A stretch of DNA of 64,000 nucleotides from Diplonema papillatum (taxonomy: Eukaryota > Euglenozoa > Diplonemea > Diplonemida > Diplonemidae), in the NCBI GenBank assembly GCA_030068145.1, contig JAPJBO010000052.1, positions 310,001 through 374,000 on the forward strand. The letters run 5' to 3'. The notes beneath the pieces are model-generated. The model saw nothing but the letters and a program-made list of their open reading frames with translations. It was not told the origin of the DNA and did not search any database. Of this stretch, positions 11,905 through 28,504 are shown piece by piece. The position numbers were made by a program, and so were the translations under genes. Position 1 is the stretch's first letter; each line of letters opens with the position of its first letter.

Positions 11905-14122
11905 TTCCCGCTGTTGGGTCTTCAAACAGGTTGACAATTGTCGCCAAGAGGCTACAACTAAAGTTGTTGCACTCGTGGATTGTTTTCAGAAAGTGTAACC
12001 TAGCAGTTGGTGATAAGATAGTCAGAGAATGGGAAGATACGGGCTGCAGATCTCTGCATCCGGGTTGCGGAATGTTCACGCATTCCCTTTCGGCAATCCT
12101 GCACGTCCGAGCAAGCTCGTCAGTGGCAGCTTTGAGGCGAGCAATTACACCTTGCCTTAGGACCGAGTGACCCATGTCCAATTGCTGTTGACACGGAAAC
12201 CTTCTCCACTTCGGCCTTCAATGTTCTCCATTGAATATTCGCTACTACAACCAAGATCTGCACTCATCCACGCTCCATCGAGGCTCACGCCAACGACTTC
12301 GCGGCGTGGACCACGCACTCCTACGCACGCCTGGCTTTGTGATACCAGTACGCGGCCAACTATGGGTGGATCGCTTGAGCATCATCCATTTTCGGGACCG
12401 GTGCATTCGGCAGGTGAGTTGTTACACACTCATTATCGGATGCCGATTTCCATGGCCACCGTCCTGCTGTCAAGATGAACCGACACCCTTTGTGGGATCT
12501 GATGAGCGATCACTCGGACACCTTAAGTCAGCTCTCGGTTCATCCCGCGTCGCCAGTCCTGCTTACCAGAAGTGGCGACTTCGCAGGATTGCGTGCAAAT
12601 GCTGGGAGGTCTACGGCAAAGCTTCACATGTTCGGCGGTGCTCGACAGCTCCGTAGAGACCGTACTCAGTGGTAACCAGTCAACCAAAAACATCAACGCG
12701 GCGTGAACCTTCGTCGGCTTGCTCAACACAACAGCCGGGCAGTAGCGCAACATCCCTTCCCACAGAATAACACGTTTTCGCGTTTGCCATATTTGTGACG
12801 TAAAGGGAAACGAGGACGCATTGACTAGTTTCATTCTTAAGAGGAGCAAACGTTGATTGCATACAATTGAAAATAGGAGCACGCAACTCGATCTCAATGC
12901 GGTGAAGTCCGACACATGTTGCACGATAACGTCTAGAGGAGCCAAATAAAGACTGCTGGAATTCATGGCACGTCTGGTCACTAACAATGTAACGCATGTG
13001 TCCACTGCCAAACGGATTCGGGCGTTGAGCCGAACAATACTTGGTTTCTCCGACTTCCTGGAGGATCCCATTTTTGGAACAATCTTACAAAACATTTGTT
13101 GAAACAAGAAATGAAAAAGAAAAGCTGGGCAAAGCGAATCATTTACGGACTGGCGGTACCTGCTATAAGGATGGTGCGTCCCTTCGAGAAACCCGGCTTG
13201 GTGCATGCACCGATGGCCTGTGTAGTCATCTTGCACTGCAACCTCTCACGATATCTCGCATTAAGAGAGCTCGGATGACCTTCGTGCTGGGAAGGGAAGA
13301 ACACAGTACCTGTGCAAGTATTCGGAGTTGCGGTTTTTCAAATGGGAACGTGCTTTGGTGTCTCCGGTGATGTAGGAGTTTTGAGTTGCGTTCCCGAAGA
13401 CAGAGCTGTCGTTTTCCGGCTGGACGTTGGCACAAAAGGGACAGAAATACAAAAGCATGCAATCCAGTTCTGACATCTACCTACCCTGACAGTCGGGTAT
13501 CTTCGCGCTCATCCATGGTTCTCTCAATATGCAGGCCACGTCTTTACAGTTCTATGCAGTCGCGACTAGCCAACACTAGGATTTGTACAGAAAATGTGAG
13601 TGCCAAACTAAATACTTGATAGGATGCCAAAAGGGGGATCGCAAGAAATACGGATTCCCGCGCATGCGGAAAATCACAACGTTAATCACGTGCGGAGTCT
13701 AAAGTGACAGCCAGTTGTGAGTGAAAATACTGTGTACTGTAGTAACAAAGTCCCAAATGCATGGTGACGCGTCGACCGAGGTGAGAACCCCTGCAGCTTT
13801 CTGCACTTCGTCTTCTGAAGGCGGGCTATCTCAAGGCCAGGTCTCTGAGAATCCAAGGTCTTAAAGTCTCCGGGTAACCTTTGTCGAATTCAAAGGTGTT
13901 GTATACTGGTTTTCAATCATGAGTACCATCTCACGTACGACGGGCGTTACGGACGAGGGCATACCCGTTGATCTGGCCGTCGCGCTCCCTACACGACCAA
14001 TGCCGGGCTAGAGTCCTAAGGAACCAGTGGGTGGAGAGAGCTTCAAGCGGTGAGGACAGCGGTTAAGTGGTCGTGCAGGGCTGCGTGTCTGCGACCCCAG
14101 CTGGCAGTACCTTAACACTGGA
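11905..14122. other. Gene-poor interval upstream of the orphan gene
   Basis: It holds no convincing gene. The longest open frame, 12523-13236 on the minus strand, has no motif and unremarkable composition. The 5' end of the orphan gene and its promoter should lie at the left end. Confidence 0.45.
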
Positions 14123-15274
14123 TCACGTGCACACGTGTATTTCTTGACCGTCGATCAACGTGCTTTCGGGTTGCTCTAGAGCAGGGGCGACGACGACCGG
14201 TGCGGCAGCAGGCGCAGCCCTGGGGCTTGGGGCAGGAGATGCATCGGGCAGGGATATAAAGGCGGCGTTCCTCGGGTAGATCCAGTGGAGCTCCCCTCCG
14301 GGAAGTTCAACATTATACACTATTTCACCCGCCACCTCTTGAAATGCCACAAGCCTCGCATGCTTTCCATTCAGCGCCGAGCGCTCACTCGATCCACTCA
14401 ATCCCGCAATTTCGATCGTCGAACCCACCTGTAAGATAACCACCTTCAAATTCGCCGGCAGATACGGTCCCTCCTCAGGTCCCTCCGGGGTGGTTCTAAT
14501 GTACACCCTTCTACAATGTGGGTGACTCGTCGATATCCGAGCGATCTGACACCCCGTCCCGTTCTGCTCCGGATTCTTCATCAAACCCGTTATAGTGACA
14601 TAGACACCCGCTTCAGGCAGCGCTTTCCCATCCCAAAGCAACTTCAGATTTGACGACCGAACAGTCCACTTCGTAACATTCGTGTGTCGCGGCCTCCTTT
14701 TCAGAATCTCGGTTCTCCGGTTCTTCACGAAATCAGGGTTCAGCACCAAAACCGACATCTCTTCTTCTGAGACATACTCCACCACTTTCGCCAATTCTTT
14801 GTTCAAGAAAGGCGCGGCCATGTGTTGCAGGGCTACAACTGCGTTAAGGGGGAACTCTTTTAGCCCCTCAGGCGGCTGTGGCACTTCGCTACCAACGGTA
14901 TCCGAGGCCATCCTGACGTGCACCAAGCCTACCTTCTTTCCATCGTTGTCCCTTAACTGAACCCAATCTTCGTATGGGACTCCCTTGTAAAAGCTCAGCG
15001 AACTCAAGTCCAGACTTCCGGCTCCCATTTCAGACCCAGAGCTGGTTTTGAGCTTGACTTCCACCGTCGGACTAGATGTTGGGAGCCCGGTAAATTCCAG
15101 TAGCTCGTTCCAAACTGGGTTCTGCGCCTGCTCTGCGACCGATGTTTTCTGCGTGGCGCCGCCTACCTCGATCATTACCTGTACCGCGCTCGGCCCCTTG
15201 AAGCTGAACTTCTTCGGTTCAGCAAGGTCTTTGGCGCAGAACACCTTCACCTCCATCTTACCACAGTTCTCCAT
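14123..15274 (-). CDS. C2-domain protein with C-terminal NGK/SH3-like motif
   Basis: 383 residues. The ATG at 15274 is chosen; the longer frame begins with TTG. Residues 5-115 form a C2 domain: MEVKVFCAKDL opens strand 1, QNPVWNELLEF is the classic NPvWnE block, and VEVKLK and LSSLSFYKGVPYEDWVQL complete the sandwich. The Asp residues that bind calcium in synaptotagmin-type loops are largely absent, so calcium-independent lipid or protein binding is more likely. Residues about 150-300 show no family I know. Near 305-350, SALNGKHARLVAFQ followed by ELHWIYPRNAAFISLP resembles the LNGK-x-G-x-V/PeNL module often found in protist proteins. An Ala/Pro-rich tail follows. It probably acts at membranes as an adaptor. 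AT-rich DNA upstream (15440-15600) may be its promoter region. Confidence 0.85.
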   Translation of the reverse strand: MENCGKMEVKVFCAKDLAEPKKFSFKGPSAVQVMIEVGGATQKTSVAEQAQNPVWNELLEFTGLPTSSPTVEVKLKTSSGSEMGAGSLDLSSLSFYKGVPYEDWVQLRDNDGKKVGLVHVRMASDTVGSEVPQPPEGLKEFPLNAVVALQHMAAPFLNKELAKVVEYVSEEEMSVLVLNPDFVKNRRTEILKRRPRHTNVTKWTVRSSNLKLLWDGKALPEAGVYVTITGLMKNPEQNGTGCQIARISTSHPHCRRVYIRTTPEGPEEGPYLPANLKVVILQVGSTIEIAGLSGSSERSALNGKHARLVAFQEVAGEIVYNVELPGGELHWIYPRNAAFISLPDASPAPSPRAAPAAAPVVVAPALEQPESTLIDGQEIHVCT

Positions 15275-15785
15275 TGTGGATATTTGCCTCCAGAGAGCGA
15301 CTCTCAACTCTGTATCAGTGTGCTAAGCTTTGTCGCAGCTGAAGCGGTAACTACGCCTGTTTTATCGCGTGAAGAGATACAGAATGCGTGGAGATCGTTG
15401 TGTCCGCAGCGCGGTTGAACATAAGTTGTTGTTCCAACTTTCTTTCGTTTCCTATCTGTGTTTATTTTTGCATAAATTATACCGTCTAGCTTCTAATTTA
15501 TAGGCCAATAATAAGCGTGGTTTATAATTTATCGGCCGCTAATTTAATTACTATTTTCGGCGGCACTTTTTGTGGACTAATTAATTAATTTTTTTCAGTG
15601 GCACCGCCAGTGCAGTCAGGCTCGACCGCTCGACCGGTCAAGTCACTTTCCGAAAAAAACTTTTTTTTTTTTGGACAGGAATTTGCCACAACTTTTTTTT
15701 TTGCCCTGGTGAATACAGGTCAAAATCCATCCTATGCCAGAAAAATTTTTTCCCACGCTACGCGTGGGAAAACAACATGTGGTGT
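15275..15785. promoter_or_regulatory. AT-rich upstream region of the C2 gene
   Basis: At 15470-15600 the composition drops to strongly AT-rich, with paired TTATAGGCC/TTATCGGCC and TTAATTAATT blocks, directly upstream of the C2 gene start on the minus strand. No defined promoter element could be named. Confidence 0.3.
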
Positions 15786-15832
15786 TTTAGAGTAAATGTT
15801 CGCTTGAAACTCTGGGTTTTAGCTGAAACGGG
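15786..15832 (-). repeat. Short block shared with the presumed 3' end of the Penelope-like element
   Basis: TTTTAGAGTAAATGTTCGCTTGAAACTCTGGGTTTTAG-type sequence recurs with few changes at 17994-18035, where it meets an A/T homopolymer. It may be a fragment of the same retroelement 3' end. Confidence 0.4.
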
Positions 15833-15997
15833 CAGTCTCACAAAGTTAGTACACTGTTGTGCTTCAGTAGTAGGACGGCTTAATACGACTTTTTCAGTCG
15901 CTTCGCTTGTGAATCAATAGTGCCATGAACAGGTCGACAACCCAGGTTCACTGTCACATCGTCCATCATACAAAAGATGGGCCCAGAGTGACGAGTT

Positions 15998-16319
15998 TCG
16001 GGGTTGCAGTGGAGTCTTCAGATGCCTGAGGCAATGGAACACTGTTTTGGTTTTGTAGGTGGGCCTCATTATAAATGACTGCTGTGACCTTGGCATGTGC
16101 CTTCGTGGGTGTGCTGCTGCTTCACCACCTTGTTGTAGACCCCAGTAGTCTCTGTATTGTGGCTGCAGCCGAACATACTGCAATCCAGGAGTTGGTGAGT
16201 GGAGTTGGGAATCCAAAAGCTTGCCCTTGCCCCTGTGACCTTGGCTTTTGTCAAAGCTTTCCGTTTTCCCACCATTTTCTACTACTACCCATGGCAGATT
16301 TTTCTAATTTTTTTTTTTG
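15998..16319. repeat. Direct repeat copy 1 (about 320 bp)
   Basis: The copy runs from GGGGTTGCAGTGGAGTCTTC to CATGGCAGATTTTTCTAATT and a T run. A second copy at 17672-17993 is nearly identical but differs by a few small indels, for example an extra GAGTG near 16198. It contains an open stretch encoding a hydrophobic peptide (MTAVTLACAFVGVLLLHH) in both copies. Whether that is a gene or coincidence is unclear. Confidence 0.75.
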
Positions 16320-16760
16320 CCCGGTCGAATCGACACAGGTGCCGGTCGAATTCGACCGGTGCCCACGTTCGACCGCCTTGACCGGTCGAATGTCAATCCG
16401 AGAGCAATAATTTTTTTTTTGTCAATTCGACCGGCCGGTGACAGCACTGGGCACCGCTTTAGCGGCGCCGCAGGCCCACGGTATGGTGCATACCACACAG
16501 TATACACAGCCGTTTTCTCGACGCAGACGGTACGGCACCCCTCTGTGCGCTTCTTCTCCTGATGCTTTCACGGGGTGCAGGGCGAAGGGGAATGGGTTCT
16601 GATGGTCACGATGGCAGTACGCTTTAAATGAAGGTAGAACGCGAGGGAAGCGCCGCAGGCCAGTATAGTGCAGACCGCACGGTATGGCCAGGATGCCTGA
16701 CACGGACGGTACGGTACGCCTGTGTGCGGTTCTTCACTTGAAGCTTCCACTGAAGGAGAA
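16320..16760. repeat. TCGAATTCGACC palindromes and a diverged 105-bp direct repeat
   Basis: 16320-16440 carries several GGTCGAAT/ATTCGACC palindromic motifs. Blocks at about 16455-16570 and 16650-16755 share GCGCCGCAGGCC, CACGGTATGG, GACGGTACGG and CTGTGTGCG in order, so they are old duplicates. Confidence 0.5.
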
Positions 16761-16974
16761 AGTAGTTTGGCGGATGGTGGTGCACTGGGGTAGAAGAGAG
16801 AGAGAGAAAAGGCCGCTCCTGGTCCAGGAACGTGACGGTCAACCACAGCTTGCAAAGCTTGAGTCGGAGGCAGCAGTGCCACAACCCCGTCCGCTCTGCC
16901 CCTGTGGCTGACCTCTCGACGAGCTTGTGTTCAGCGCGAGCGCCAAGCCCCAAGGTGCGCCTAGCCTTGATGCT

Positions 16975-17742
16975 TTAGTTTGGGAAATCGGTAGCCACTT
17001 GACCCGTAGGCCCGTGGCTCTGCAGTACCGCCGAACACGTGAAGCTTGGCTCCCGTGTAGCAGGCTTTCCCTGGTATTTCTTCACCAATACACTGGGGTA
17101 AAGAAAGAAAATAAATGCGTAGTTTTGGTATATTCTTTTGAAAAGCGCGAGAGGGGGAGAGATGGGAGGATCCCTAATTCCTGCTCTCAGGTGTGGCACC
17201 TTCGGTGCGTGCTTTTTTCTCACCAGAGTCGGAAGAGGTCTTTTCTGCAAGAACGTGAAGATGCTGGGTTGTCCCTTCGGTGGTGGCTTTCGAGGTCGGC
17301 CTACACGCTTTCCAGACGGCTTAGTTGCCGCTTTCGGTCTTAGTGTGGCTGGAAGGACAGGGGGAACTTGATCGTGGGGTTGTGACTGCGTTGCAGAGGC
17401 TGGGGGTAAGACGATAGCAGGTTCAGGCTCCTCCGTGGGCTGCCTTGCTGTGCGGTCCCGTTCGGTCTCCTCAACCTCACTGAGGGTCTTGTCCCAATCG
17501 GTCTGTTCTTTGAGCAAAGCAACATACTTGTCGAACACAACATCGGTAGGTGTGTTGTCCTTTCGGATCGGTTGAGATAACCCCATTGCACGATGGATTC
17601 CGCACAACCCCCATGAAGTTCCCCCTGTCCTTCCAGCCACACTAAGACCGAAAGCGGCAACTAAGCCGTCTCGGGGTTGCAGTGGAGTCTTCAGATGCCT
17701 GAGGCAATGGAACACTGTTTTGGTTTTGTAGGTGGGCCTCAT
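16975..17742 (-). CDS. Open frame with AT-hook-like motif (unknown, possibly a transposon fragment)
   Basis: A minus-strand open frame of about 255 codons. The central part (roughly residues 58-170) has gene-like composition: an acidic helix-rich stretch (LLKEQTDWDKTLSEVEETER), a Pro-rich linker, then KRVGRPRKPPPKGQ, an AT-hook-like DNA-binding motif. The flanking ends look non-coding: a Phe/Tyr-rich tail and an N-terminal part lying in the direct repeat. A 56-bp inverted repeat (17314-17369 versus 17617-17673) runs through the frame, so the ORF reads the same DNA on both strands. The AT hook suggests a nuclear or transposon protein. I cannot name a family, and the true ends are uncertain. 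Confidence 0.35.
   Translation of the reverse strand: MRPTYKTKTVFHCLRHLKTPLQPRDGLVAAFGLSVAGRTGGTSWGLCGIHRAMGLSQPIRKDNTPTDVVFDKYVALLKEQTDWDKTLSEVEETERDRTARQPTEEPEPAIVLPPASATQSQPHDQVPPVLPATLRPKAATKPSGKRVGRPRKPPPKGQPSIFTFLQKRPLPTLVRKKHAPKVPHLRAGIRDPPISPPLALFKRIYQNYAFIFFLYPSVLVKKYQGKPATREPSFTCSAVLQSHGPTGQVATDFPN
17314..17673. repeat. 56-bp inverted repeat pair with 247-bp spacer
   Basis: The arm at 17314-17369 is matched in reverse complement at 17617-17673 almost base for base (both contain GTTGCCGCTTTCGG or its complement). The right arm abuts the second 320-bp direct repeat. Confidence 0.75.
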
Positions 17743-17993
17743 TATGACTGCTGTGACCTTGGCATGTGCCTTCGTGGGTGTGCTGCTGCTTCACCACATT
17801 CTTGTAGACCCCAGTAGTCTCTGTATTCTGGCTGCAGCCGAACATACTGCAATCCAGGAGTTGGTGGAGTTGGGAATCCAAAAGCTTGTCCTTGCCCCTG
17901 TGACCTTAGCTTTTGTCAAAGCTTTCCGTTTTCCCACCATTTTCTACTACTGTGTGGCACTACCCATGGCAGATTTTTCTAATTTTTTTTTTT
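17672..17993. repeat. Direct repeat copy 2 (about 320 bp)
   Basis: Second copy of the 15998-16319 unit. It ends in the same ATTTTTCTAATT plus T run and is followed at once by the block shared with 15786. Confidence 0.75.
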
Positions 17994-18440
17994 AGAGTTA
18001 AAGTTCGCTTGAAATTCCGGGGTTTTAGGGTCTCCGTGAGACCGTTCATGAATGGGTTCTCTTAGAGCAAGAAAGGGCTATGTGGTTACGGGTTGTATAT
18101 TGCGTGCACGCTTTCGTTATGGGTTATGGCTAGCCATGTCCGGGACTGTTTGTGACCGACACCAAGTACATTCCTTCGTGGAGTGTAGTCTTGGGCCCCC
18201 CACGTTCTACAAGTTGAGCAGGGGTTGCCTTGTAGCCCGTACCGGTCTGTTGTCCGCGTTTATATGTATTTTCTCGCAGTGTGGTGCTTGGATTTCGCGG
18301 CACTTGCGGTGCTTCACGTGGTGCGGGTTGTTTCCGTCCTAAAATAAGGTTTTTTTTGGGTAGATTTGCAGGGTAAAACTGTTCGTTGCTCGCCACAGTT
18401 AAGGCACTCTGGGCACACTGGGTACCCGTGGTTAGTGAGG

Positions 18441-21400
18441 TTATTCGTCTGATGGAGTCGTCGTTGCTGTGCGTTGTTTACAGTGCTTCTTTTTGCACCA
18501 GGGCTTATGGTGTCGTAGACTTTTGAAGAGTGGTTTCCCCACGGTTCGTCCGTCGCTGTGGCAGTAGGGACATCTCTCTCGTTTCTGGGTGGTGCTTCGC
18601 AGCGTTGTTTCTGCTTGTGACTTAGTTCTGGTTGGTTTCTTCTTGCAGTAACGTAGGTGCGTCCGTAATCCTTGTTTTCCCTTCAGTTTGAGGCCGGTTG
18701 TTGTTGTGCGTGTGTGGCAGTGGGGACATCGTAAGTCGTCTTCACTGCTGGTCTCTGTTTCCGCGGTGGTACTGGAGGTCTGTGACGTGCCTGGTGTTGT
18801 GGGTGTTTGTGTGCTGTCGTGTCGTTGTGTGGGTGTGTCGGTAGATGTCTCGTCTCCGCGCATGGCTCTAAGTATACTTTGCGTCGAGTCCGGCTCTTGT
18901 GTTGTGGTTCTGGACGTGGCAGGCTTTGGGGGTTCATAGTGGTTGTGGTCTATGGGTGGCGGGACATCCGTCTGTGGGTAGTCTTTGAGCTGGTAGACGC
19001 AGAGGTAAACTTCGTTGTCGGCGTAGTTTTGTGTCGAAGTGGAGTGCGTCTGTAGTCCGTCGAAGCGCGTCCATCGTTGGTTAGCGTCGATATCGTTGAG
19101 GGCGTGGATGACGTAGTGCCCTGCGTTGTTGTGGCCGGAGTGTACTGCTATGGCTTTGAGAACGAGTGGTGTGTTTTGTCCTGGCAGCGTGATAGAGTGG
19201 TCGGCGCGTATAGCGGTACGGTTCGTCGCTTCGTGTCTACGGGCTCTTTGAAGCTGAATCAACAGCATTGAATTAATGCGGTGAAATGTTGTTGTTGTGA
19301 GGGTGGTATCGGTGATTTTGCAGACTTCGCATCTGTAGTCGGCGGCGGGGCCAGGTTTGATGTGGTTGTTCAAGCACCGTTGGATCGAGTTGTCGATTGG
19401 AGGTAGAAAGGTTATGTCGTGGTCTTCGGGGGGGTTGGTTTTGTTGTGGTTGCAGTTTTTACAAGTAGTTGTCGTCGTCGTTGTATGTCGTAGACCGTTG
19501 AAAGCGTCAGGGCGATGTTGCTGGCAAGCTTGGTGTGCGAGGTTTTCGTCAAGAAGTGCTGTGGTGATGGCCCTTAGCACTTCCCCGAGGTCGCATTGCT
19601 GCCCGTTGCCGAACGGTCCGTCGATGTTGGCGAAAACGTGCAGCACCGTCAAAGCGTGGACAGCTGCCGTGCATTCGCCTTTCGTGTGTGTTGGGCAGTC
19701 GTGGTATGTGACTACTTGTTGTGCCATGTCTGTGGCGGCGATCAAGTTGAGGGCCGCTTGCAGAAAACAGGAGTTTGTGGTGGTGTATCTCGTGAGTTTC
19801 GACATGGTCCTCGCTCCGGCGGCTGCGATTGCTGCCGCTAAAGTGATGGTTGCTGCTAGGTTGGCTACTCGGTGTTTCAAGGTGAACTGTGGTTGTGGTT
19901 GTGAAAGGAGGGTTGTTGGTCTTTCCTCGTGTTCGTGGGTAGTTGAGGAGTGGCTGTCTGTCATTGAGTCGCGATCGTCCGGTGTTACAGGCAGTTCGGC
20001 TGGTTTGAAGTTAAGGGGTTGGTGTCTTCCGGCGTATTCTGGCTCTTCCATGCGCGGTTTGCCGTTCTTGAAACGCGCAATGCTGTACCCTAAGAACGGT
20101 TTTAACTGGCTGTGTAGTCGTGGTAGGGTTCGGAACTCCTCCGTCAGCCAAGCTTGCCACGGGGGGTAGAGAACTCTGGGGTGGTGCCCCCGTTCGAGCA
20201 TCGCGTATACGTTGCGCTGGATCTCGACGCGAAGGTCCTGCCAGTGGTTGGTTTGTCGGATTGCCCTTATCAGTGAGCCTTTGAATATGCCGCTGGCCTG
20301 TGATTTGGGGGCGGTGGTCTGGTAGTGTGTGAACCGGGTGCCGAAGGTTTTGGGGTGCACGCTTAGTCTTATGTGTGGTGGGTGTGGTGTTGCGGGTCGT
20401 TCAATGCGTATACGTATTCCAAGGAAGACGATGTCGTCGCGTGCAGCTGTCGTCTCTTTGTACTCCATACGATAGAGTGATTGAGGTGGTGGTTTGCAGT
20501 CCCATTGGAGGAAGTCATCTATGAATCGCCATGTGTCGACGTGGGCTTTGGCTTCGTCGACTTTGCCATCTGCTAGCAGTCCGTCTATGTACTCGGACTC
20601 CACACTGTAGCAGTACAAGTTCGCCAGGTCCGAACTTGCATTGCCTCCCATAGGTATGCCTTCCGTCTGGCGTAGTATGGTTTCGTCCTGCTCGATGTAG
20701 GCATTGTCGATGACAAAGTTGAGTAGGGCTTTGAGTTCTTCTTTTGTATAATTTCGACTGGTGTTGTTCGCCCCTTTGCCGAAACTAAAAGTCTTTTTGC
20801 CCTGTTGCTTAGCTCCTCGGGTGAGGTGGTTGTGGCCGTGTTTCTCCTCGTATTCATAAGCTTCGTCGACAGCTGAACCAACCCTGCGCTTGAGATCCGC
20901 GTGCGGTAGGTTGGTGTACATTGTCGTGAAGTCGTGGTCGGTGGGTGTTTTGTATCTCAGATGGGTTTGACGCTGTTTGACGTTGAGGGCTATGTCGTCG
21001 GGGCTCTCGGTGAAGAAGACCTTCTTTATTCCCGTCTGTCGTTGGTTCCGTCGGTCCTTTTCCTTTATCGTCCGCATTATAGCCTTCAGCAGTCCGGACA
21101 GCTCTAGGTGGGCGTTCGTAGTAGTTGCTTTCGGTTTCTGCTTGCGCGCGGTTGTCTTGTTGTCTTTCCTTACAATGTCTGTTGCTACGCCCGCAATCCA
21201 CCGGAAACTCGGTTCGGCTTTATGTAATTTAAGACTGCCGTAGAGGTAAGGTAGTCCGCCTTGTGCTTGTAGTTTGAAAGGCTCGAGTTGCTGCTTGTGC
21301 TGTTGTTGTAGCTGGGTCTTCGTAATATTTTGCTTCTTGTATGTGGCACTGGTTTGTATTTGCTCCCGTAGTGTGTTTGTGTAGTACGCCTTGCAACAAA

Positions 21401-24400
21401 AACCGAAGTCGTGTGTGGTTTTGTCTACGGGCAGTATCACCAGGTCTTGTTTGAGTCTCTTGAGTTCTTGCGATGCGATACGGCTCAACGTTTCTTCGTC
21501 AGATGGTGGTAAGGTGGCGAGGCGTCCCGAAAGTTCGTCCTTCAACGCTGTTCCAAAAGCGGAAGCGTTTGGTTCCGACGGGTAGTATTTTTCTACGTAT
21601 TCGTCTATGGAAGTGTGTAGTCCCTCTTCGAGTGCGTGATGGTCCTGGTAGCAGCGGTATTTTCGTCCGCGCTTGATACACTCAGTGAGGCCTTTGTCTT
21701 GTGTTATATCGAAAAGGTGTCCGATCGCGTGTCCTTGAATGTTCTTGTCGCCACGGTAGTGTCGGCACGCGCATTGATCGGGTGGACCGAGTGCGAGGTC
21801 TGGCAGGCTTTTACTGACTTCTGTGACGTTCTGGACACGTAGGAACAGGGGTGGGTTTAGTCGGAACGTCGTCTTGGTACGATCTAGAGTGCGTCGGTTA
21901 GGGCATGCTTCGCGTATTTGTGGTTGTTGGAGTAGGTCGTTGAGGTGGAGTCGGTGAATGTGATCACTTCCATGTGTGATGATCAAACGTGCTGGTGCGC
22001 CGTCATTCTTCTCCACTTTCGACAAAGTTACCTCGCTGAGCCTATCCTTCAAATGGGTTTCCAGCGTGATGACTTTCTTTGGTAGGTTACTAGTTGGTGC
22101 GTTCGATGCTATCCAGTTGAGCAGCCGTCGTGCCCTCGGTCGTCCCATCGAGCTGAAATCGTATTTATCGAGGTCTTTGTCGTTGAGCGCGAGGAGATGG
22201 TGGAGTTGTTTGCGGATGGAGTAAGCGCGGCCTTCGGTGGTCTGGTTGATGAGTAGCTGACCGTCCGCTATCCAGGCCCAAACGGTGCTGGACGGTGCAC
22301 TCGGAGGTCGGAAACGTTCTTGGTTTGACTTCTTGCTGCGACTGCGGTGCTGTCCTGTGTTGCTTCTCATGTACCGTTGAGCGTTGTAGACGGTGTTGAG
22401 GTGCGAAATCCAGAAGTTTTCTCGCGGGAGGGCTTGACGTCTGAAGTCTTCCGTCGAGGCGTTGTCGTCAATTTTGATCTTAATTAGGGGGACGGTGAAT
22501 AGCGGGTAGTTTCTTTTCAACATCGCGGACGCTACAGGTGTGCCGTTACGTCTAGCGTACCAATGTGAATCTAAGCGCTCGCGCGCGGTGTGTTTGGTCT
22601 GGCCGACGTAGCGAGGGTTGCCGCGTTCGTCTACTAGTGCGTATACGACTCCTTTGTCGGCATAACTCGCTTTGTCTGTGTCGCAATGTTTCCATCCTTT
22701 GGCCAGTTTGCGATGATACTTGGCGAGAAACGTCTTCTCGGCGTCTTTTCGTCGTGCTTCGTATTCACTCCAGAACTGTTTTCCGTAGTTGAATTTGGCT
22801 TTCGTTCGAAAGCATGTCAGGAAAGGGTTCTTGTGAAACTCCGGCCTTCGTGCGTCCTGTGAATGTATCGCGTTCTGGACAATTGTGTGCTTCTGGAAAT
22901 CCTTTTTGCAAGGCGAGTTGGTGGAATTTGCGGGGATGTCTTCTGGTGTACTTTGAGTGTGTTCCGTTGCATTAGTCGTAGGTCGGTAGTGCCAGTTGCT
23001 GTAGGTTGCTTGTCGTTGGGATGGGGTGGGTATGGGTTGTTGTAGGTTCGTGTCTGTGGTGGCATGGGTGTAGGTCTCCCGTGTTCGGTGGTGCGTGATT
23101 TTATGAAGGTGGCTATCGCGTATGAAGGGTGTGAGGATAGGCGGTGGTGAAGGTGTTGGGTGTTCGGTTGTACTTTGTATACTATCTTTGTATGTGCCGC
23201 GCCCGGGCATCGTGTTGTTAGTCGGTTTGTGTTTGGGTGCGTCGCTTTGGTGTGAGCTAAGTTCGGCGGATGGCGGTGTGGGTTTTGCTAGCGGGTGTGT
23301 TTGGTGGGACGGCGTCGAGTTTGGGGGTGTAGTCTGCTGCGTTCTATGTGTCATCGCTTCCTGATAAGTGGGTAAAGGGGATGCGTCGTGTGTAGTGTGG
23401 TTTGACATGCGGCGTGAGAATGTAGGTGTGTTGGGCGTACCGGCAGCGTGTGTCGTATTGTTCGTGGGGTTGGGGGCAAGTGGTTTTGTTTGTGCGTGGT
23501 CGTGTAATTCGTTGGATTGTGCTTCTGAGATGGTGCTGGAGGTCGGTGTGGTGCTGTCTATTTCGTGTATGATGGGTGAGGGTGTAGTGTTACGGTATTG
23601 TGTGGGGTTTCTGGTTTGTTTGGGTGTCTGCGTGCTCAGCATCGTCGGTGGTGGGGCCTGGTGATATGGTGCGTAAGTTGGCTCGTGTACTGCTGCTGGC
23701 GGTGTACGATAAAGTTCGCGTGGGAAGACGTAAGGACTGGGAGGCTCTTTAGGTGTGCAGCGGTCATCTGAAGGCGATGGTAAAGTTGGTGTGAGTGGCT
23801 GCTGTCCGGTGTGCGGCGTCGGCGGCAGTGGAATTTGACAATACGGCGTGTATGTCGACTGTTGTCGTGCTGCGGAAGAAGGGTGATACAATTCGAGTGG
23901 GACGACGCCTGCAGAACTAGTAGGCTCCTTCGGTGTGCAGCGGATGTCAGATGGGGTCGGCAGCGTTGGTATGTGTGGCTGCGGTTTGGTGCTCGACGTC
24001 GGCGGTAGTCGGGACTGGCGATGCTGTGAGTGTGTAGGATCGCGTCTTGCTGAAGAAGCTGTTTGGTGTGGTACGCCTGGGTCAACGTCTGGAGATCTAT
24101 GCCCTTTCGGTGTGTGGCGTTTGTCTGATAGGGTTGGTGTGTGTTGCAGCGGTCTGTTGCCAGCTGGCGGCCGTGTGTCTTGTCGAAGCGTTGTGGATGC
24201 CGGTTCGAGTCTTTGTACGGGTGGTGTGTTATAAAGTTCGCGTGGGAAGACGTATGGAAAACTAACATGCTGCTTCGGTGTACGCCGGTTGTCTGATGGG
24301 GATGGAAGGGTGGGTGTGTGGGGTTGCAATTTGGTCTGCCTGTGGTCAATCTGGCCTGTGATGTAAGTGCGAGTAGTTGTAGCTGTAGTGCGGCGTGGTT

Positions 24401-26249
24401 GGTTTAGCGTCTGTTGTGGTGACCACTGGTGAGCCGTCGGGGAACCGGAGGCTTCGTTCGAAAAAGATGGCGGTGTTGGGTTGATCGTGGGGACGTATCT
24501 GTCTGAACGGGCTGCGACGTCGCTGTACAAGGTCGGTGTCGAACGATTTGTTGGCGGTGTTTGAGGTGTGGGTTGCTTCGATTGTCGGTATGGTCGAGGG
24601 ATGAAGAACTCCGGAGTTCGTACTGGTGACAATCTGTGCATGATCGGTTTGTAGTTCGAACTTCGCGGACTTGGTGAAAAGAAAGAGTCTGCCGGAAAGG
24701 AGGGTAGCGGTGGGTTGGCCGTCGGGACGTACCAGTCGGCGTGGGTTGCGGTGTCTCTGCTTGTTGGTGGTGCGAGCCGTGGCGATGGTCTTCGCGGTAT
24801 ATAGAGGTCCGTCGGTGTTGTTGGCAAACTGTGCATGTGTGACTTTGGAGAACTGTACGTGGTGCGCCGTGCCGGAGAGTATGATGATTCGGAGGGTGAC
24901 CGTGGGTTGGCTGTAGGGACGTACCAATCAGCGGGGTTGCTGCGTCTTTGTATATTGTTGGTGCGAACCGTGGTAGCGGTCTTCGCGGTATACAGGGGTC
25001 CGTCGGTGTTGTTGGAAAACTGTGCATGTGTGACTTTGGCGAACTGGATGCGGTGCGACGCGTCGGAGAGATGAAGTTTCGGCGGGTGCAAGTGGGTTGG
25101 CTGTAGGGACGTACCAATCGGCGGGGGTTGTCGCGTCTTTGTATGTTGCTGGTGCGAACCGTGGCGACGGTCTTCGCGGTATATAGAGGTCCGTCGGTGT
25201 TGTCGGTAAACTGTGCATGTGCGACTTTGGTGGGCCGGACGCGGTGCGACGCGTCGGTGGAGTATGAAGATTCGGCGGGTGACAGTGGGTTGGCTGTAGG
25301 GACGTACCAATCGGCGGGGGTTGTCGCGTCTTTGTATGTTGTTGGTGCGAACCGTGGCGACGGTCTTCGCGGTATATAGAGGTCCGTCGGTGTTGTCGGT
25401 AAACTGTACATGTGCGACTTTGGTGGGCCGGACGCGGTGCGACGCGTCGGGGAGTATGAAGATTCGGCGGGTGACAGTGGGTTGGCTGTAGGGACGTACC
25501 AATCGGCGGGGGTTGTCGCGTCTTTGTATGTTGCTGGTGCGAACCGTGGCGACGGTCTTCGCGGTATATAGAGGTCCGTCGGTGTTGTCGGTAAACTGTG
25601 CATGTGCGACTTTGGTGGGCCGGACGCGGTGCGACGCGTCGGGGAGTATGAAGATTCGGCGGGTGGCAGTGGGTTGGCTGTAGGGACGTACCCATCGTCG
25701 GGGGTTGTTGTGTCTTTGTATGTTGCTGGTGCGAACCGTGGCGACGGTCTTCGCGGCATATAGAGGTCCGTCGGTGTTGTCGGTAAACTGTGCATGCGCG
25801 ACTTTGGTGGGCCGGACGCGGTGCGACGCGTCGGGGAGTATGAAGATTCGGTGGGTGACAGTGGGTTGGCTGTAGTGACGTACCAATCGGCGGGGGTTGT
25901 CGCGTCTTTGTATGTTGCTGGTGCGAACCGTGGCGACGGTCTTCGCGGTATATAGAGGTCCGTCGGTGTTGTCGGTAAACTGTCGGACGAGGTGCGACGC
26001 GTCGGGGAGTATGAAGATTCGGCGGGTGGCAGTGGGTTGGCTGTAGGGACGTACCCATCGTCGGCGGTTGTAGCGTCTGTGTATGTTGTTGGTGCGAACC
26101 GTGGCGACGGTCTTCGCGGTATATAGAGGTCCGTCGGTGTTGTCGGTAAAATGTGCATGTGCGACTTTGGTGGTTCGGACTCGGTGCGACGTGTCGTGGA
26201 GTATGAAGATTCGACGGGTAACAGTGGGTTGGCTGCAGGGACGTACCAA
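18441..26249 (-). CDS. Penelope-like polyprotein: GIY-YIG endonuclease, reverse transcriptase, USP-like protease, zinc fingers
   Basis: The open frame has 2,602 codons and no real start, because its 5' part lies in the 192-bp repeat. Numbering here is from 26249. Residues 1-430 are repeat. GIY-YIG is at about 1195-1290: VVYALVDERGNPRYVGQT, the Arg in RERLDSH, and the Glu/Asn end in ENFWISHLNTVYN. A CACRHYRG...GRKYRC region precedes the RT. The RT starts near 1600 (LVILPVDKTTHDFGF); motif B is IPMGGNASSDLANL near 1862 and the catalytic Asp pair is in RFIDDFLQW near 1906. A hydrophobic segment lies near 2127-2148. A USP-like domain follows: Cys box NSCFLQAALNLI (about 2156), two zinc CxxC pairs, His box GHNNAGHYVIHAL (about 2370), then W..FDGL and NEVYLCVYQL. 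Two C-x2-C...H...C fingers close the protein. RT, nuclease and protease key residues all look intact. Confidence 0.88.
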   Translation of the reverse strand: MVRPCSQPTVTRRIFILHDTSHRVRTTKVAHAHFTDNTDGPLYTAKTVATVRTNNIHRRYNRRRWVRPYSQPTATRRIFILPDASHLVRQFTDNTDGPLYTAKTVATVRTSNIQRRDNPRRLVRHYSQPTVTHRIFILPDASHRVRPTKVAHAQFTDNTDGPLYAAKTVATVRTSNIQRHNNPRRWVRPYSQPTATRRIFILPDASHRVRPTKVAHAQFTDNTDGPLYTAKTVATVRTSNIQRRDNPRRLVRPYSQPTVTRRIFILPDASHRVRPTKVAHVQFTDNTDGPLYTAKTVATVRTNNIQRRDNPRRLVRPYSQPTVTRRIFILHRRVAPRPAHQSRTCTVYRQHRRTSIYREDRRHGSHQQHTKTRQPPPIGTSLQPTHLHPPKLHLSDASHRIQFAKVTHAQFSNNTDGPLYTAKTATTVRTNNIQRRSNPADWYVPTANPRSPSESSYSPARRTTYSSPKSHMHSLPTTPTDLYIPRRPSPRLAPPTSRDTATHADWYVPTANPPLPSFPADSFFSPSPRSSNYKPIMHRLSPVRTPEFFIPRPYRQSKQPTPQTPPTNRSTPTLYSDVAARSDRYVPTINPTPPSFSNEASGSPTAHQWSPQQTLNQPRRTTATTTRTYITGQIDHRQTKLQPHTPTLPSPSDNRRTPKQHVSFPYVFPRELYNTPPVQRLEPASTTLRQDTRPPAGNRPLQHTPTLSDKRHTPKGHRSPDVDPGVPHQTASSARRDPTHSQHRQSRLPPTSSTKPQPHIPTLPTPSDIRCTPKEPTSSAGVVPLELYHPSSAARQQSTYTPYCQIPLPPTPHTGQQPLTPTLPSPSDDRCTPKEPPSPYVFPRELYRTPPAAVHEPTYAPYHQAPPPTMLSTQTPKQTRNPTQYRNTTPSPIIHEIDSTTPTSSTISEAQSNELHDHAQTKPLAPNPTNNTTHAAGTPNTPTFSRRMSNHTTHDASPLPTYQEAMTHRTQQTTPPNSTPSHQTHPLAKPTPPSAELSSHQSDAPKHKPTNNTMPGRGTYKDSIQSTTEHPTPSPPPILTPFIRDSHLHKITHHRTRETYTHATTDTNLQQPIPTPSQRQATYSNWHYRPTTNATEHTQSTPEDIPANSTNSPCKKDFQKHTIVQNAIHSQDARRPEFHKNPFLTCFRTKAKFNYGKQFWSEYEARRKDAEKTFLAKYHRKLAKGWKHCDTDKASYADKGVVYALVDERGNPRYVGQTKHTARERLDSHWYARRNGTPVASAMLKRNYPLFTVPLIKIKIDDNASTEDFRRQALPRENFWISHLNTVYNAQRYMRSNTGQHRSRSKKSNQERFRPPSAPSSTVWAWIADGQLLINQTTEGRAYSIRKQLHHLLALNDKDLDKYDFSSMGRPRARRLLNWIASNAPTSNLPKKVITLETHLKDRLSEVTLSKVEKNDGAPARLIITHGSDHIHRLHLNDLLQQPQIREACPNRRTLDRTKTTFRLNPPLFLRVQNVTEVSKSLPDLALGPPDQCACRHYRGDKNIQGHAIGHLFDITQDKGLTECIKRGRKYRCYQDHHALEEGLHTSIDEYVEKYYPSEPNASAFGTALKDELSGRLATLPPSDEETLSRIASQELKRLKQDLVILPVDKTTHDFGFCCKAYYTNTLREQIQTSATYKKQNITKTQLQQQHKQQLEPFKLQAQGGLPYLYGSLKLHKAEPSFRWIAGVATDIVRKDNKTTARKQKPKATTTNAHLELSGLLKAIMRTIKEKDRRNQRQTGIKKVFFTESPDDIALNVKQRQTHLRYKTPTDHDFTTMYTNLPHADLKRRVGSAVDEAYEYEEKHGHNHLTRGAKQQGKKTFSFGKGANNTSRNYTKEELKALLNFVIDNAYIEQDETILRQTEGIPMGGNASSDLANLYCYSVESEYIDGLLADGKVDEAKAHVDTWRFIDDFLQWDCKPPPQSLYRMEYKETTAARDDIVFLGIRIRIERPATPHPPHIRLSVHPKTFGTRFTHYQTTAPKSQASGIFKGSLIRAIRQTNHWQDLRVEIQRNVYAMLERGHHPRVLYPPWQAWLTEEFRTLPRLHSQLKPFLGYSIARFKNGKPRMEEPEYAGRHQPLNFKPAELPVTPDDRDSMTDSHSSTTHEHEERPTTLLSQPQPQFTLKHRVANLAATITLAAAIAAAGARTMSKLTRYTTTNSCFLQAALNLIAATDMAQQVVTYHDCPTHTKGECTAAVHALTVLHVFANIDGPFGNGQQCDLGEVLRAITTALLDENLAHQACQQHRPDAFNGLRHTTTTTTTCKNCNHNKTNPPEDHDITFLPPIDNSIQRCLNNHIKPGPAADYRCEVCKITDTTLTTTTFHRINSMLLIQLQRARRHEATNRTAIRADHSITLPGQNTPLVLKAIAVHSGHNNAGHYVIHALNDIDANQRWTRFDGLQTHSTSTQNYADNEVYLCVYQLKDYPQTDVPPPIDHNHYEPPKPATSRTTTQEPDSTQSILRAMRGDETSTDTPTQRHDSTQTPTTPGTSQTSSTTAETETSSEDDLRCPHCHTRTTTTGLKLKGKQGLRTHLRYCKKKPTRTKSQAETTLRSTTQKRERCPYCHSDGRTVGKPLFKSLRHHKPWCKKKHCKQRTATTTPSDE

Positions 26250-27088
26250 TCAGCCGGGGTCGCGTCTTTGTATGTTGTTGGTGCGAACCGTGGCGACGGT
26301 CTTCGCGGTATATAAAGGTCCGTCGGTGTTGTCGTCAAACTGTGTATGTGCGACTTTGGTGGGCTGTACGCGGTGCAACGCGTCGTGGAGTATGAAGATT
26401 CGGCGGGTGACAGTGGGTTGGCTGTAGGGACGTACCAATCAGCAGGGGTTGCCGCGTCTTTGTACGTAGCTGGTGCGAAGCGTGGAGACGGGTTTTGCGG
26501 TATATAGAGGTCCGTCGGAGTTGACGTCAACCTGTGCACGTGCGACTTCGGGCAAGCTTTGGGCGAAGGACTAGTATTGGTGTGATGTCGGTGGCGTCGT
26601 GAGGGACGGTCTGCCGTCGCTCGAGCACGGTTGGGCTTCCCGACAGCGTGCGCGCGTGAAGTCGGGTCGGCGCCGTGCTCTCGAGCGAGGTGCTGTCCAG
26701 GGGTGTTGCTTTGCGGCTTGTCGTTTGAAGCAAACTTGTTGTAGCGGCTCTTCGGTAGGTTTTTAGATGGATATAATCGGTCGCGGTTGGGGCAGCCACT
26801 AGGACTGGAGAGTGAGTTGGAGGGAGTGGGAGGGAGGGGGTGACGTGAAAAGCTCATTCGTGAAGAATGAACGTTAAACGCCGCGATGTTTCTTATCGCT
26901 GTAAGGAACTCAGGGTCCGGGCCCACATGTGCTGTGCCATGTGGGTAGTTTCGCATTTTGAATGCTAACGTAGCAGGTGTGTTATTTAAGGAGAAGGCAC
27001 ACCCCAACTCGCCACTGAGTGGCCCGAGTTGGCTGACGATACGTTGTACGCCGATTTTTTTCTCCTTCGAAGTAGAAAAAGAGAGCAT
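24404..27088 (-). CDS. N-terminal ORF of the Penelope-like element (overlaps in another frame)
   Basis: The frame is open for 917 codons from 27157, but the first ATG is at 27088, giving 894 residues. The first 190 residues look like a genuine unique N terminus (SKEKKIGVQRIVSQLGPLSGELG, then a basic Arg/His stretch). The rest reads the 192-bp repeat as ADWYVPTANPLSPAESSYS-type units, Pro/Thr/Ser-rich. It lies in a different frame from the RT ORF and overlaps it across 24404-26249 without stops in either. Small indels inside repeat units (for example near 25255) make each frame change motif along the way. I infer that the ancestral protein ran from here into the endonuclease-RT frame and that this copy has drifted. 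Ribosomal frameshifting or splicing within the repeat is an alternative. Confidence 0.6.
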   Translation of the reverse strand: MLSFSTSKEKKIGVQRIVSQLGPLSGELGCAFSLNNTPATLAFKMRNYPHGTAHVGPDPEFLTAIRNIAAFNVHSSRMSFSRHPLPPTPSNSLSSPSGCPNRDRLYPSKNLPKSRYNKFASNDKPQSNTPGQHLAREHGADPTSRAHAVGKPNRARATADRPSRRHRHHTNTSPSPKACPKSHVHRLTSTPTDLYIPQNPSPRFAPATYKDAATPADWYVPTANPLSPAESSYSTTRCTAYSPPKSHIHSLTTTPTDLYIPRRPSPRFAPTTYKDATPADWYVPAANPLLPVESSYSTTRRTESEPPKSHMHILPTTPTDLYIPRRPSPRFAPTTYTDATTADDGYVPTANPLPPAESSYSPTRRTSSDSLPTTPTDLYIPRRPSPRFAPATYKDATTPADWYVTTANPLSPTESSYSPTRRTASGPPKSRMHSLPTTPTDLYMPRRPSPRFAPATYKDTTTPDDGYVPTANPLPPAESSYSPTRRTASGPPKSHMHSLPTTPTDLYIPRRPSPRFAPATYKDATTPADWYVPTANPLSPAESSYSPTRRTASGPPKSHMYSLPTTPTDLYIPRRPSPRFAPTTYKDATTPADWYVPTANPLSPAESSYSTDASHRVRPTKVAHAQFTDNTDGPLYTAKTVATVRTSNIQRRDNPRRLVRPYSQPTCTRRNFISPTRRTASSSPKSHMHSFPTTPTDPCIPRRPLPRFAPTIYKDAATPLIGTSLQPTHGHPPNHHTLRHGAPRTVLQSHTCTVCQQHRRTSIYREDHRHGSHHQQAETPQPTPTGTSRRPTHRYPPFRQTLSFHQVREVRTTNRSCTDCHQYELRSSSSLDHTDNRSNPHLKHRQQIVRHRPCTATSQPVQTDTSPRSTQHRHLFRTKPPVPRRLTSGHHNRR
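24715..26525 (-). repeat. 192-bp tandem repeat, about ten units, open in three minus frames
   Basis: GGACGTACC landmarks recur near 24723, 24917, 25108, 25301, 25494, 25685, 26049, 26240 and 26432, with a variant at 25877. Spacing is 191-194 bases apart from one 172-base unit. As 192 is divisible by three, each frame is preserved from unit to unit. All three minus frames are stop-free over about 24930-26058. Confidence 0.9.
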
Positions 27089-27202
27089 GGTGTTGGGAAC
27101 CTCAGTACGGTCTTGTGATCGGCCCTCGCTACTGCCGTCTTTTGGCTCAGGTTTCAAACGTTAGGAACGAGGGGCTTGCTGTCATGCTCAGGGGAGGTTG
27201 AG

Positions 27203-27345
27203 GACCCCTATATGACCCCTATATGACCCCCATATGACCCCCATATGACCCCTATATGACCCCTATATGACCCCTATATGACCCCCATATGACCCCTATA
27301 TGACCCCTATATGACCCCTATATGACCCCCATATGACCCCTATAT
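27203..27345. repeat. 11-bp satellite TATATGACCCC
   Basis: About 13 units of TATATGACCCC, with some CATATGACCCC variants. The array continues at 27552-27637 and 27843-27950 between inserted MITEs. Confidence 0.95.
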
Positions 27346-27551
27346 CATGCAGGGTCAAAACCTTGTGTTTTTTGGAAATGGCAAAAAAAAAAATTCTGGA
27401 AAAAAATTGGGTTTTTTGAATTTTAAAATTTGGAACAAACTCTGCAGTAATTTTTTATGAAGTTGAGCAAATTTTTTTTTCCAACTTTTTTTTGGGTTCA
27501 TTGCCTCCGCGGGAGACGTTTTAAAAAGACACAAGGTTTTGACCCTGCATG
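27346..27551. mobile_element. CATG-MITE copy (206 bp)
   Basis: Full inverted termini, ATAT duplication at 27342-27345 and 27552-27555. Inserted into the 11-bp satellite. Confidence 0.93.
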
Positions 27552-27637
27552 ATATGACCCCATATGACCCCTATATGACCCCTATATGACCCATATGACC
27601 TATATGACCCCTATATGACCCCTTATGACCCCTATAT
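27552..27637. repeat. 11-bp satellite TATATGACCCC, continued
   Basis: Seven or eight partly degenerate units between two MITEs. Confidence 0.9.
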
Positions 27638-27842
27638 CATGCAGGGTCAAAACCTTGTGTCTTTTTGAAAATGGCAAAAAAAAAATTCGGAAAAAAAATG
27701 GGTTTTTTGAATTTAAAAGTTTGGAACAAACTCTGCAGCAATTTTTGCGGAAGCTGAGCAAAATTTTTTTTTTCCAAAATTTTTTTAGGGCTCCATCGGC
27801 CCCGCAGGGAGCGTTTTAGACACAAGGTTTTGACCCTGCATG
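27638..27842. mobile_element. CATG-MITE copy (205 bp)
   Basis: Both termini present, ATAT duplication at 27634-27637 and 27843-27846. Confidence 0.93.
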
Positions 27843-27950
27843 ATATGACCCCTACATGACCCCTATATGACCCCTATATGACCCCTATATGACCCCCATA
27901 TGACCCCTACATGACCATATGACCCCTATATGACCCATATGACCCCATAT
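27843..27950. repeat. 11-bp satellite TATATGACCCC, continued
   Basis: Third stretch of the array, with CTACATGACC variants, ending at a truncated MITE. Confidence 0.9.
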
Positions 27951-28500: not shown

Positions 28501-28504
28501 TTGA

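What the first reader, a model, noticed from the sequence alone, without database searches (positions are those of the whole stretch)
18990..19810. A ubiquitin-specific-protease-like domain fused in frame to a Penelope-like reverse transcriptase
Downstream of the RT in the same uninterrupted minus frame I read the full signature of peptidase C19: Cys box NSCFLQAALNLI, a CDLGEVLRAI segment like the QQDA-EF block, two CxxC zinc pairs, the His box GHNNAGHYVIHAL, then W..FDGL and the closing NEVYLCVYQL. Retroelements with OTU or Ulp1-like proteases are known, but I do not know of a USP domain in a Penelope-like element. It might protect element proteins from ubiquitin-dependent degradation, or process a ubiquitin-like fusion. 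The functional idea is inference.
Basis: partly seen in the sequence, partly recalled or inferred. Interest (0 to 1): 0.87.

Follow-up and report, generated by a model that had tools for sequence, protein, structure and literature searches.

The report
Retrotransposon carrying its own deubiquitinase
A jumping gene in a marine single-celled organism carries, built into its copying enzyme, a protein-cutting domain of the kind that strips ubiquitin tags off other proteins; related jumping genes carry other domains of that kind in the same place, which suggests that removing ubiquitin helps such elements spread.

Summary
Confirmed and extended. The minus-strand ORF 26249-18441 holds GIY-YIG endonuclease, CxC linker, reverse transcriptase (RT), a full-length USP/peptidase C19 domain (Pfam UCH 7.6e-12, profile 8-254 of 254) and two zinc knuckles. 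The endonuclease is N-terminal: a permuted Penelope-like element (PLE). The host is Diplonema papillatum. The unit is mobile: 32 scored loci, the window's included; 17 of 19 other fetched copies share the A-tailed 3' end; 42 of 46 related RT loci have the USP in line. USP dN/dS is 0.13-0.14; the catalytic Cys is present in 52 of 52 aligned PLE USPs. Relatives carry Josephin or a probable OTU domain in the same slot, or no recognised protease. A non-LTR retrotransposon of the same genome carries a USP that groups with the window family's, excluding a sister PLE family's (98/95): the module crossed between retrotransposon classes. Best reading: a cis-acting deubiquitinase that shields the RNP or relieves a ubiquitin block at integration. 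Activity and substrate are inferred. Transposon-borne OTU/Ulp1 are known; ten searches found no report of USP or Josephin in PLEs, but the key PLE paper was not held.

The parts
17986..26551 (-). Whole element, about 8.5 kb; 3' end with short A-run at about 17986-17989, 5' end (approximate) inside a tandem array
   Evidence: 17 of 19 other fetched copies lose homology between 17974 and 17990 after the same or nearly the same end ...AACTTTAACTCTAAAAA; the C187 copy carries the same 192-bp array upstream
24710..26548 (-). 5' tandem array, 192/384-bp units, part of the element; probably untranslated
   Evidence: TRF; shared with the C187 copy; no constraint in the ORF frame among three in-register units
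18441..26249 (-). Open reading frame of 2602 codons; probable protein starts at one of the ATGs 23642-23210 (inferred)
   Evidence: the 500 codons upstream of residue 1151 have pN/pS 0.49-0.52 in two comparisons between copies
22392..22655 (-). N-terminal GIY-YIG endonuclease domain
   Evidence: Pfam PF01541 E=8.4e-4, 20 bits, below cut-off 22.6
21765..21773 (-). CxC motif (CAC) between endonuclease and RT
   Evidence: both Cys invariant in the alignment with P0001 and P0002; link to N-terminal-EN PLEs recalled
20109..21488 (-). Reverse transcriptase core, with FIDD motif
   Evidence: HMM of the aligned RT region, residues 1588-2047; weak RVT_1, E=0.056
18993..19775 (-). USP (peptidase C19) domain
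   Evidence: Pfam UCH residues 20-280 of window:18960-19832; E=7.6e-12
19767..19769 (-). Catalytic Cys (residue 2161)
   Evidence: Cys in 52 of 52 aligned PLE USPs
19116..19118 (-). Catalytic His (residue 2378)
   Evidence: His in 50 of 50 rows with a letter there
19059..19061 (-). Third catalytic residue, Asp 2397
   Evidence: Asn or Asp in 47 of 49 rows with a letter there
19320..19463 (-). Two CxxC pairs of the USP zinc ribbon (CKNC, CEVC)
   Evidence: Cys in 50-52 of 52 rows at the four positions
18645..18728 (-). C-terminal zinc knuckle 1 (C2HC-like)
   Evidence: pattern match; also after the DUB in P0019, P0024, P0027, before it in P0020, and in gene model P0030
18495..18572 (-). C-terminal zinc knuckle 2
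   Evidence: pattern match
17986..18440 (-). 3' untranslated region ending in a short A-run

Best explanation
The window holds one copy of a recently active Penelope-like retrotransposon of Diplonema papillatum with an N-terminal GIY-YIG endonuclease. Its single protein carries a USP deubiquitinase between the RT and C-terminal zinc knuckles, as an inherited part of the element. The element moves as one unit, by target-primed reverse transcription (inferred from 5' truncation, A-tail and one target-site duplication). The USP most likely works in cis: riding on the RNP, it removes ubiquitin either from the element's own protein, so that it escapes the proteasome, or from chromatin or repair proteins at the nick, so that integration can finish. 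Shown: fusion, spread as a unit, constraint, catalytic residues, sharing with a non-LTR element, and different DUB types in related elements. Inferred: enzymatic activity, substrate, and benefit to the element.
For: Full-length UCH match with catalytic residues kept in the window and nearly all of 51 further PLE USPs. RT and USP travel together: 32 scored loci, 25 of them without a stop inside, and 42 of 46 RT loci. Shared A-tailed 3' terminus in 17 of 19 other fetched copies, variable 5' ends, a 16-bp duplication in L023. USP dN/dS 0.134 and 0.140 in two comparisons, RT-USP spacer 0.26, second spacer 0.15 and 0.35, RT 0.030 and 0.045. Convergence of chemistry: Josephin above cut-off in P0003, P0004, P0006, P0025, probable OTU in P0027 (E=0.0012, below cut-off), USP in 11 of the 29 first-round relatives scanned and 42 of 66 second-round proteins, the query included (precomputed Pfam). 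A USP is shared with a non-LTR element that also holds a probable OTU domain. Unrelated ubiquitin proteases in one slot point to ubiquitin removal, not polyprotein cutting, as the selected activity.
Against: No expression, structure or biochemistry. USP constraint is three to four and a half times weaker than that of the RT, and in the closer comparison it hardly differs from the second spacer (0.134 against 0.151 on few changes; no error bars computed). The residue after the catalytic Asp is Gly in the window, where 46 of 49 rows have Asp. Between the window copy and the 97% subfamily the zinc-knuckle region shows 1 synonymous and 6 nonsynonymous changes. A target-site duplication was seen in 1 of 11 copies examined. 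Related proteins without a DUB exist: 15 of 66 end 2-40 residues after the RT, contig edges not checked, and seven first-round relatives with tails of 109-757 residues show none.
Confidence: 0.6

Rival explanations
1. Polyprotein processing: the protease cuts the element's own protein to separate RT, zinc knuckles or a ubiquitin-like leader, as aspartic proteases do in LTR elements.
For: The DUB lies between two functional parts (RT and zinc knuckles) in the window, P0019, P0024 and P0027.
Against: No ubiquitin-like domain in the ORF by Pfam and no GG outside the RT. DUB families of different fold occupy the slot; what they share is ubiquitin chemistry (established knowledge). In P0042 the USP is the end of the protein (1017-1302 of 1303).
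Confidence: 0.12
2. Passenger: a host USP gene was captured by chance and hitch-hikes without benefit to the element.
For: PLEs can transduce host DNA (PMC6431247, passage read); proteins without a DUB exist among relatives; weaker constraint than in the RT, close to that of a spacer in one comparison.
Against: Catalytic Cys in 52 of 52 and His in 50 of 50; dN/dS 0.13-0.14; USP on both sides of a starred RT branch; other DUB families in the same slot; USP shared with a non-LTR element.
Confidence: 0.15
3. Trans-acting: the USP works as a counter-defence that deubiquitinates host silencing or restriction factors for the benefit of all related elements in the cell.
For: Families with many near-identical intact ORFs in one genome; the USP is shared by two retrotransposon classes. 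The genome paper reports RNAi components (PMC10161547, passage).
Against: Fusion to the RT fits a cis benefit better; no target is known; high copy number alone does not show counter-defence.
Confidence: 0.25
4. Annotation artefact: the USP is a neighbouring host gene read through by chance.
For: NCBI models of some D. papillatum copies are named as ubiquitin carboxyl-terminal hydrolases.
Against: The same RT-USP junction at many loci, and the 3' end of the element lies beyond the USP.
Confidence: 0.01

Closest known systems
N-terminal endonuclease PLEs (Naiad and Chlamys; Craig et al. 2021, PMC8557442, not held, content recalled)
   Same: GIY-YIG before RT, CxC linker; one relative comes from Chara braunii (P0046), in line with a green-lineage range (recalled)
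   Different: A C-terminal deubiquitinase and zinc knuckles, which I do not recall for that clade and could not check; diplonemid host; A-tailed 3' end
Ginger1 DNA transposons (PMC2836005, passages read)
   Same: Alternative C-terminal OTU or Ulp1 protease on the mobility protein, not both; the authors suggest a role of the ubiquitin pathway in transposition and mention a Trichomonas protein with transposase_11 and Peptidase C19
   Different: Cut-and-paste DNA transposase, not RT; OTU/Ulp1 rather than USP/Josephin in Ginger1 itself
Utopia and NeSL non-LTR elements with a Ulp1-like protease (PMC4640811, passages)
   Same: Cysteine protease of the ubiquitin/SUMO type in a retrotransposon protein
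   Different: Ulp1-like and N-terminal, restriction-like endonuclease; reported there for nematode elements
Helentrons with OTU domain, Burro giant Gypsy elements with ubiquitination-related motifs (PMC6431247, passages)
   Same: Ubiquitin-related domains carried by transposons
   Different: Other transposon classes, other domains
Cellular USPs (USP46/USP12 are the best PDB profile matches)
   Same: Full-length peptidase C19 profile, catalytic residues, zinc ribbon
   Different: Carried by a retrotransposon; of eight host USPs compared, the only blastp match over 100 residues or more is L003, 21% over 183

Membership tests
USP / peptidase C19 | Full-length UCH profile above cut-off | tested here: met
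   45.8 bits against 23.9, 8-254 of 254
USP / peptidase C19 | Cys, His, Asp/Asn catalytic residues and zinc CxxC pairs | tested here: met
   Aligned with 51 other PLE USPs; the residue after the Asp is Gly, unlike 46 of 49 rows
USP / peptidase C19 | USP fold (fingers, palm, thumb) | not tested
   Structure prediction never accepted a job; profile match to PDB sequences only
USP / peptidase C19 | Cleaves ubiquitin conjugates | not testable with these tools
   needs biochemistry
Penelope-like elements | GIY-YIG endonuclease and RT in one ORF | tested here: met
   GIY-YIG E=8.4e-4 but below Pfam cut-off; RT aligned with relatives
Penelope-like elements | RT of the PLE/telomerase type on a tree with named reference PLEs | not tested
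   No named reference PLE was at hand; trees hold relatives only
Penelope-like elements | Pseudo-LTRs / direct terminal repeats | tested here: not met
   blastn of window 12001-18441 against 22801-31000 gave no match longer than 24 bases; the array is at the 5' end only. Only this one copy's flanks were compared, so filing as a PLE rests on the protein
Penelope-like elements | Hammerhead ribozyme (typical of canonical PLEs; recalled as lacking in N-terminal-EN ones) | tested here: not met
   No hammerhead in Rfam scans of the window at gathering score or of 17500-28500 at E<=1
N-terminal-EN PLE (Naiad/Chlamys) | Permuted order and CxC motif | tested here: met
   Order EN-CxC-RT; criterion recalled
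N-terminal-EN PLE (Naiad/Chlamys) | Insertion bias to microsatellites | tested here: inconclusive
   3' flanks of the fetched copies look diverse by eye; no statistics done

The most novel reading that the evidence does not exclude
Deubiquitination is a recurrent, exchangeable accessory function of eukaryotic retrotransposons: PLEs have acquired or swapped USP, Josephin and OTU domains in one slot, and the USP cassette has crossed between a PLE and a non-LTR retrotransposon within one genome, because ubiquitin marks limit retrotransposition.
Probability: 0.5. Interest if true: 0.87.

Novelty: new variant of a known kind. Interest (0 to 1): 0.78.

Why it matters
It gives PLEs, whose life cycle is little known, a defined enzymatic accessory that can be assayed, and points to ubiquitin as a possible control point of PLE integration. 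It offers a well-supported case of a protein module shared between unrelated retrotransposon classes in one host. Practically, the D. papillatum gene models named ubiquitin hydrolase 16 and 26 that the searches returned (P0015, P0019, P0024) contain an RT and are transposon proteins, so its apparent USP family is inflated.

Tried and rejected
Host read-through: rejected by copies. Ubiquitin-fusion processing: no ubiquitin-like domain and no GG outside the RT. Related loci in viral contigs: 34 pattern stretches, none confirmed. Pseudo-LTRs and hammerhead: none found. One origin of the PLE USPs against eight host USPs: not decided (starred branches force 1 change, 2 for the PLE label). Telomeric location of the non-LTR copies near contig ends: no TTAGGG or TTTAGGG, either strand, in three contig ends read; not pursued. 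The 192-bp array as coding repeats: a first figure (pN/pS about 1) compared against a unit that is out of register; redone on three in-register units it is 1.4 on 20 differences, so no sign of constraint, on little data; in another frame the same units give 0.34.

Not answered: searches of the own genome with P0010 and with PF02099 (Josephin), so Josephin elements in this genome were not surveyed. Structure prediction never ran.

Rows dropped before counts: six D. papillatum proteins with partial USPs (P0009, P0011-P0014, P0023) left out of the 52; 14 proteins, 13 of them D. papillatum gene models and P0046 the other, left out of the RT tree (33 rows), and 19 of 111 (110 proteins plus window) left out of that (92 rows). 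One search used 46 RT rows of 92 (those of 77% identity or more) and 83 of 135 USP rows; the 52 USP rows left out hold none on the contigs C831 or C214 of the exceptions.

Full report
What was checked. The ORF 18441-26249 (minus) is 2602 codons. Pfam on excised parts finds UCH at E=7.6e-12 in 18900-19880, GIY-YIG at 8.4e-4 (below cut-off) in 21441-22799, and RVT_1 only weakly at 0.056 in 19881-21440. On the whole ORF only GIY-YIG appears at E<=1. The order is GIY-YIG, CxC, RT, USP, two zinc knuckles.

Host. The window is C52:310001-374000 of a 271-Mb assembly. Protein P0024, named in NCBI as Diplonema papillatum, matches that assembly at 100% over 1499 residues. The D. papillatum assembly is about 280 Mb and has about 3600 scattered 28S pieces (PMC10161547, passages), and the window has a 28S fragment. 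I conclude that the host is D. papillatum.

Mobility. Residues 1151-2602 as query gave 32 scored loci in the own genome, the window's included, of 3454 first-look candidates, so a lower bound; 25 of 32 have no stop inside. 31 of 32 cover the whole USP; C1250 has a deletion of its end. Of 19 other fetched copies, 17 end at window 17974-17990 after the same or nearly the same terminal sequence and A-run, then flanks that differ by eye; L021 and L024 are the exceptions. 5' ends vary. A 16-bp duplication flanks L023. The other 10 of 11 copies examined share no word longer than 8 bases, and three of these (L026-L028) break at one place, more likely divergence than a junction. The 192-bp array is shared with the C187 copy; three other copies lose homology at 24688, 24304 and 24321. 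RT alone gave 92 matches. Of 46 that are at least 77% identical, 42 have a USP match in line within 600 bp, intact or not; the exceptions are two C831 loci lacking the end of the RT, C5:22073 with its USP match about 1.2 kb on, and C214 with four stops. A further family, 62-63% identical in RT, has the same architecture in the one copy read (L037).

Selection. Nei-Gojobori dN/dS, window copy against the 97% subfamily (L012): GIY-YIG 0.060, RT 0.030, USP 0.134, RT-USP spacer 0.264, second spacer 0.151; the zinc part has 1 synonymous and 6 nonsynonymous changes. Against the 77% subfamily (L026): 0.028, 0.045, 0.140, 0.255, 0.351, and 0.207 for the zinc part, with dS 0.9-2.0 and near saturation. 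No error bars were computed. The USP is constrained, less than the RT, and in the closer comparison hardly more than the second spacer.

Relatives. Three protein searches gave 2, 46 and 66 proteins, 110 distinct; the candidates scored were capped at about 8000. Of the 47 of the first two searches, 29 were scanned with Pfam; of the 18 not scanned, 14 are D. papillatum gene models. UCH is above cut-off in 11 of 29, Josephin in 4 of 29 (P0003, P0004, P0006, P0025), and just below in P0005 and P0008. P0001 is below cut-off (21.9 bits on the excised piece); P0002 has no Josephin hit and is placed there only by alignment. P0027 has a probable OTU domain (19.7 bits, cut-off 23.3). Nine of 29 show no DUB: P0021, P0028, P0031-P0034, P0038, P0039, P0041. 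Among eight Josephin-type rows Cys and His are present in 8 of 8; the acid is Asp in 7 and Glu in P0002. In the third search 42 of 66, the query included, carry precomputed UCH. Of the 24 others 15 end 2-40 residues after the RT; the other 9 have tails of 41-74 residues or an RT match cut short; contig edges were not checked. Of 52 aligned PLE USPs, Cys is present in 52, His in 50 of 50 with letters, Asn/Asp in 47 of 49; six partial USPs were left out beforehand.

Trees. In an RT tree of 33 rows USP lies on both sides of a starred branch (100/100): P0042, P0044, P0047 on one side, the window and eight others on the other. The latter form a group with the OTU row at 87/72, not starred. Josephin lies in two places (P0025 apart from the other seven, by a starred branch 98/97). 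The OTU row sits next to P0022 at 83/86, two long branches. A quick tree of 92 rows gives 9 changes for the USP label, 6 of them forced by starred branches, and 3 for Josephin, 2 forced; it warns that long branches meet. Trees are unrooted, nine rows of the 92 have an unknown state, and losses cannot be told from gains.

Cross-class transfer. The USP alone gave 135 matches in the own genome. Those at 46-50% identity lie in open frames up to 4088 codons. The C6 copy reads AlkB-like 2OG oxygenase (4e-11), probable OTU (9.9e-4, below cut-off), RVT_1 (3.4e-21), then UCH (1.2e-8). A restriction-like endonuclease behind the RT, and the likeness to R2/SLACS, are my reading by eye. A second such element (C233, 3806 codons) is homologous to it across the RT region and the USP; the other copies were not read. 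Against the window ORF, the only significant similarity of the C6 ORF is the USP with short flanks, residues 2141-2461, 41%, 5.8e-68. The USP tree groups the two non-LTR USPs with the three window-family USPs, excluding the USP of PLE family L037, at 98/95; these six stand apart from all other rows at 100/100; the three window-family USPs against the non-LTR pair have 90/86. Identity of the window USP is 47% and 45% to the two non-LTR USPs and 37% to L037, although L037's RT is 63% identical. Nesting among PLE USPs suggests PLE to non-LTR, which is inference.

Mechanism. The element's protein must survive in the cell and act at a nick in chromatin. A fused USP can undo ubiquitin marks on the RNP itself or on proteins at the site. 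That Josephin, and probably OTU, fill the same slot argues that ubiquitin removal, their shared chemistry by established knowledge, is what is selected. Which substrate matters is open. I put the cis models first (0.6 for the whole statement), trans-acting counter-defence second; the odds given for rivals overlap and need not sum to one.

Literature. Ten searches of the open-access library were made. 'Penelope-like' with 'ubiquitin' listed 14 papers; 'diplonemid', 'transposable', 'Penelope' none; 'Josephin', 'reverse transcriptase', 'transposable' 28, of which 10 were listed; 'retrotransposon', 'AlkB', 'OTU', 'reverse transcriptase' 2. No listing, judged by title and start of abstract, reports a DUB in a PLE. 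I read passages, not whole papers, of PMC11167929, PMC10161547, PMC6431247, PMC2836005 and PMC4640811. In the main text of the Diplonema genome paper 'Penelope' and 'ubiquitin' occur 0 times. Bao et al. (PMC2836005) report OTU or Ulp1 in Ginger1 and mention a C19 domain on a transposase, so the general theme is known. Craig et al. 2021 was not held. Absence of a report is thus limited to this library.

Mended on checking: the wording of tree support, the host-USP identity, and the test of the 192-bp units.

Noticed in passing
G000 C6:14357-2094 (L038, L041) and C233:11695-278 (L040, L042): Non-LTR retrotransposon ORFs of 4088 and 3806 codons with AlkB-like oxygenase, probable OTU (both scanned in C6 only), RT and USP. 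Residues 221-682 of the first and 59-520 of the second are 99% identical while the long stretch holding the RT is 46% identical, a sign of recombination.
   Followed up: partly
G000: 112 of 149 UCH matches in this genome, by my count of the rows, span profile positions 1/2-240 at 76.5-85.9 bits, with open frames up to 1652 codons, and look like the P0019/P0024 transposon families; 31 P0024-like candidates were scored.
   Followed up: partly
window 24710-26548: 192-bp tandem array at the 5' end of the element, kept open in the ORF frame, resembling promoter monomers of some LINEs (recalled).
   Followed up: partly
window 11997-12659 (minus): Fragment of eukaryotic LSU rRNA, in line with the scattered 28S pieces reported for this genome (PMC10161547, passage).
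   Followed up: no
window 27203-28831, 31437-32535, 33109-33761, 41522-45111, 48997-51949: Large tandem arrays with units of 7 to about 350 bp.
   Followed up: no
P0031, P0033, P0034, P0038, P0041: Related elements with C-terminal tails of 109-757 residues after the RT but no recognised protease; a diverged DUB may hide there.
   Followed up: no
P0020 residues 840-1170: Several zinc-knuckle-like segments by eye (two match the strict pattern) between RT and USP, an expansion of the C-terminal finger.
   Followed up: no
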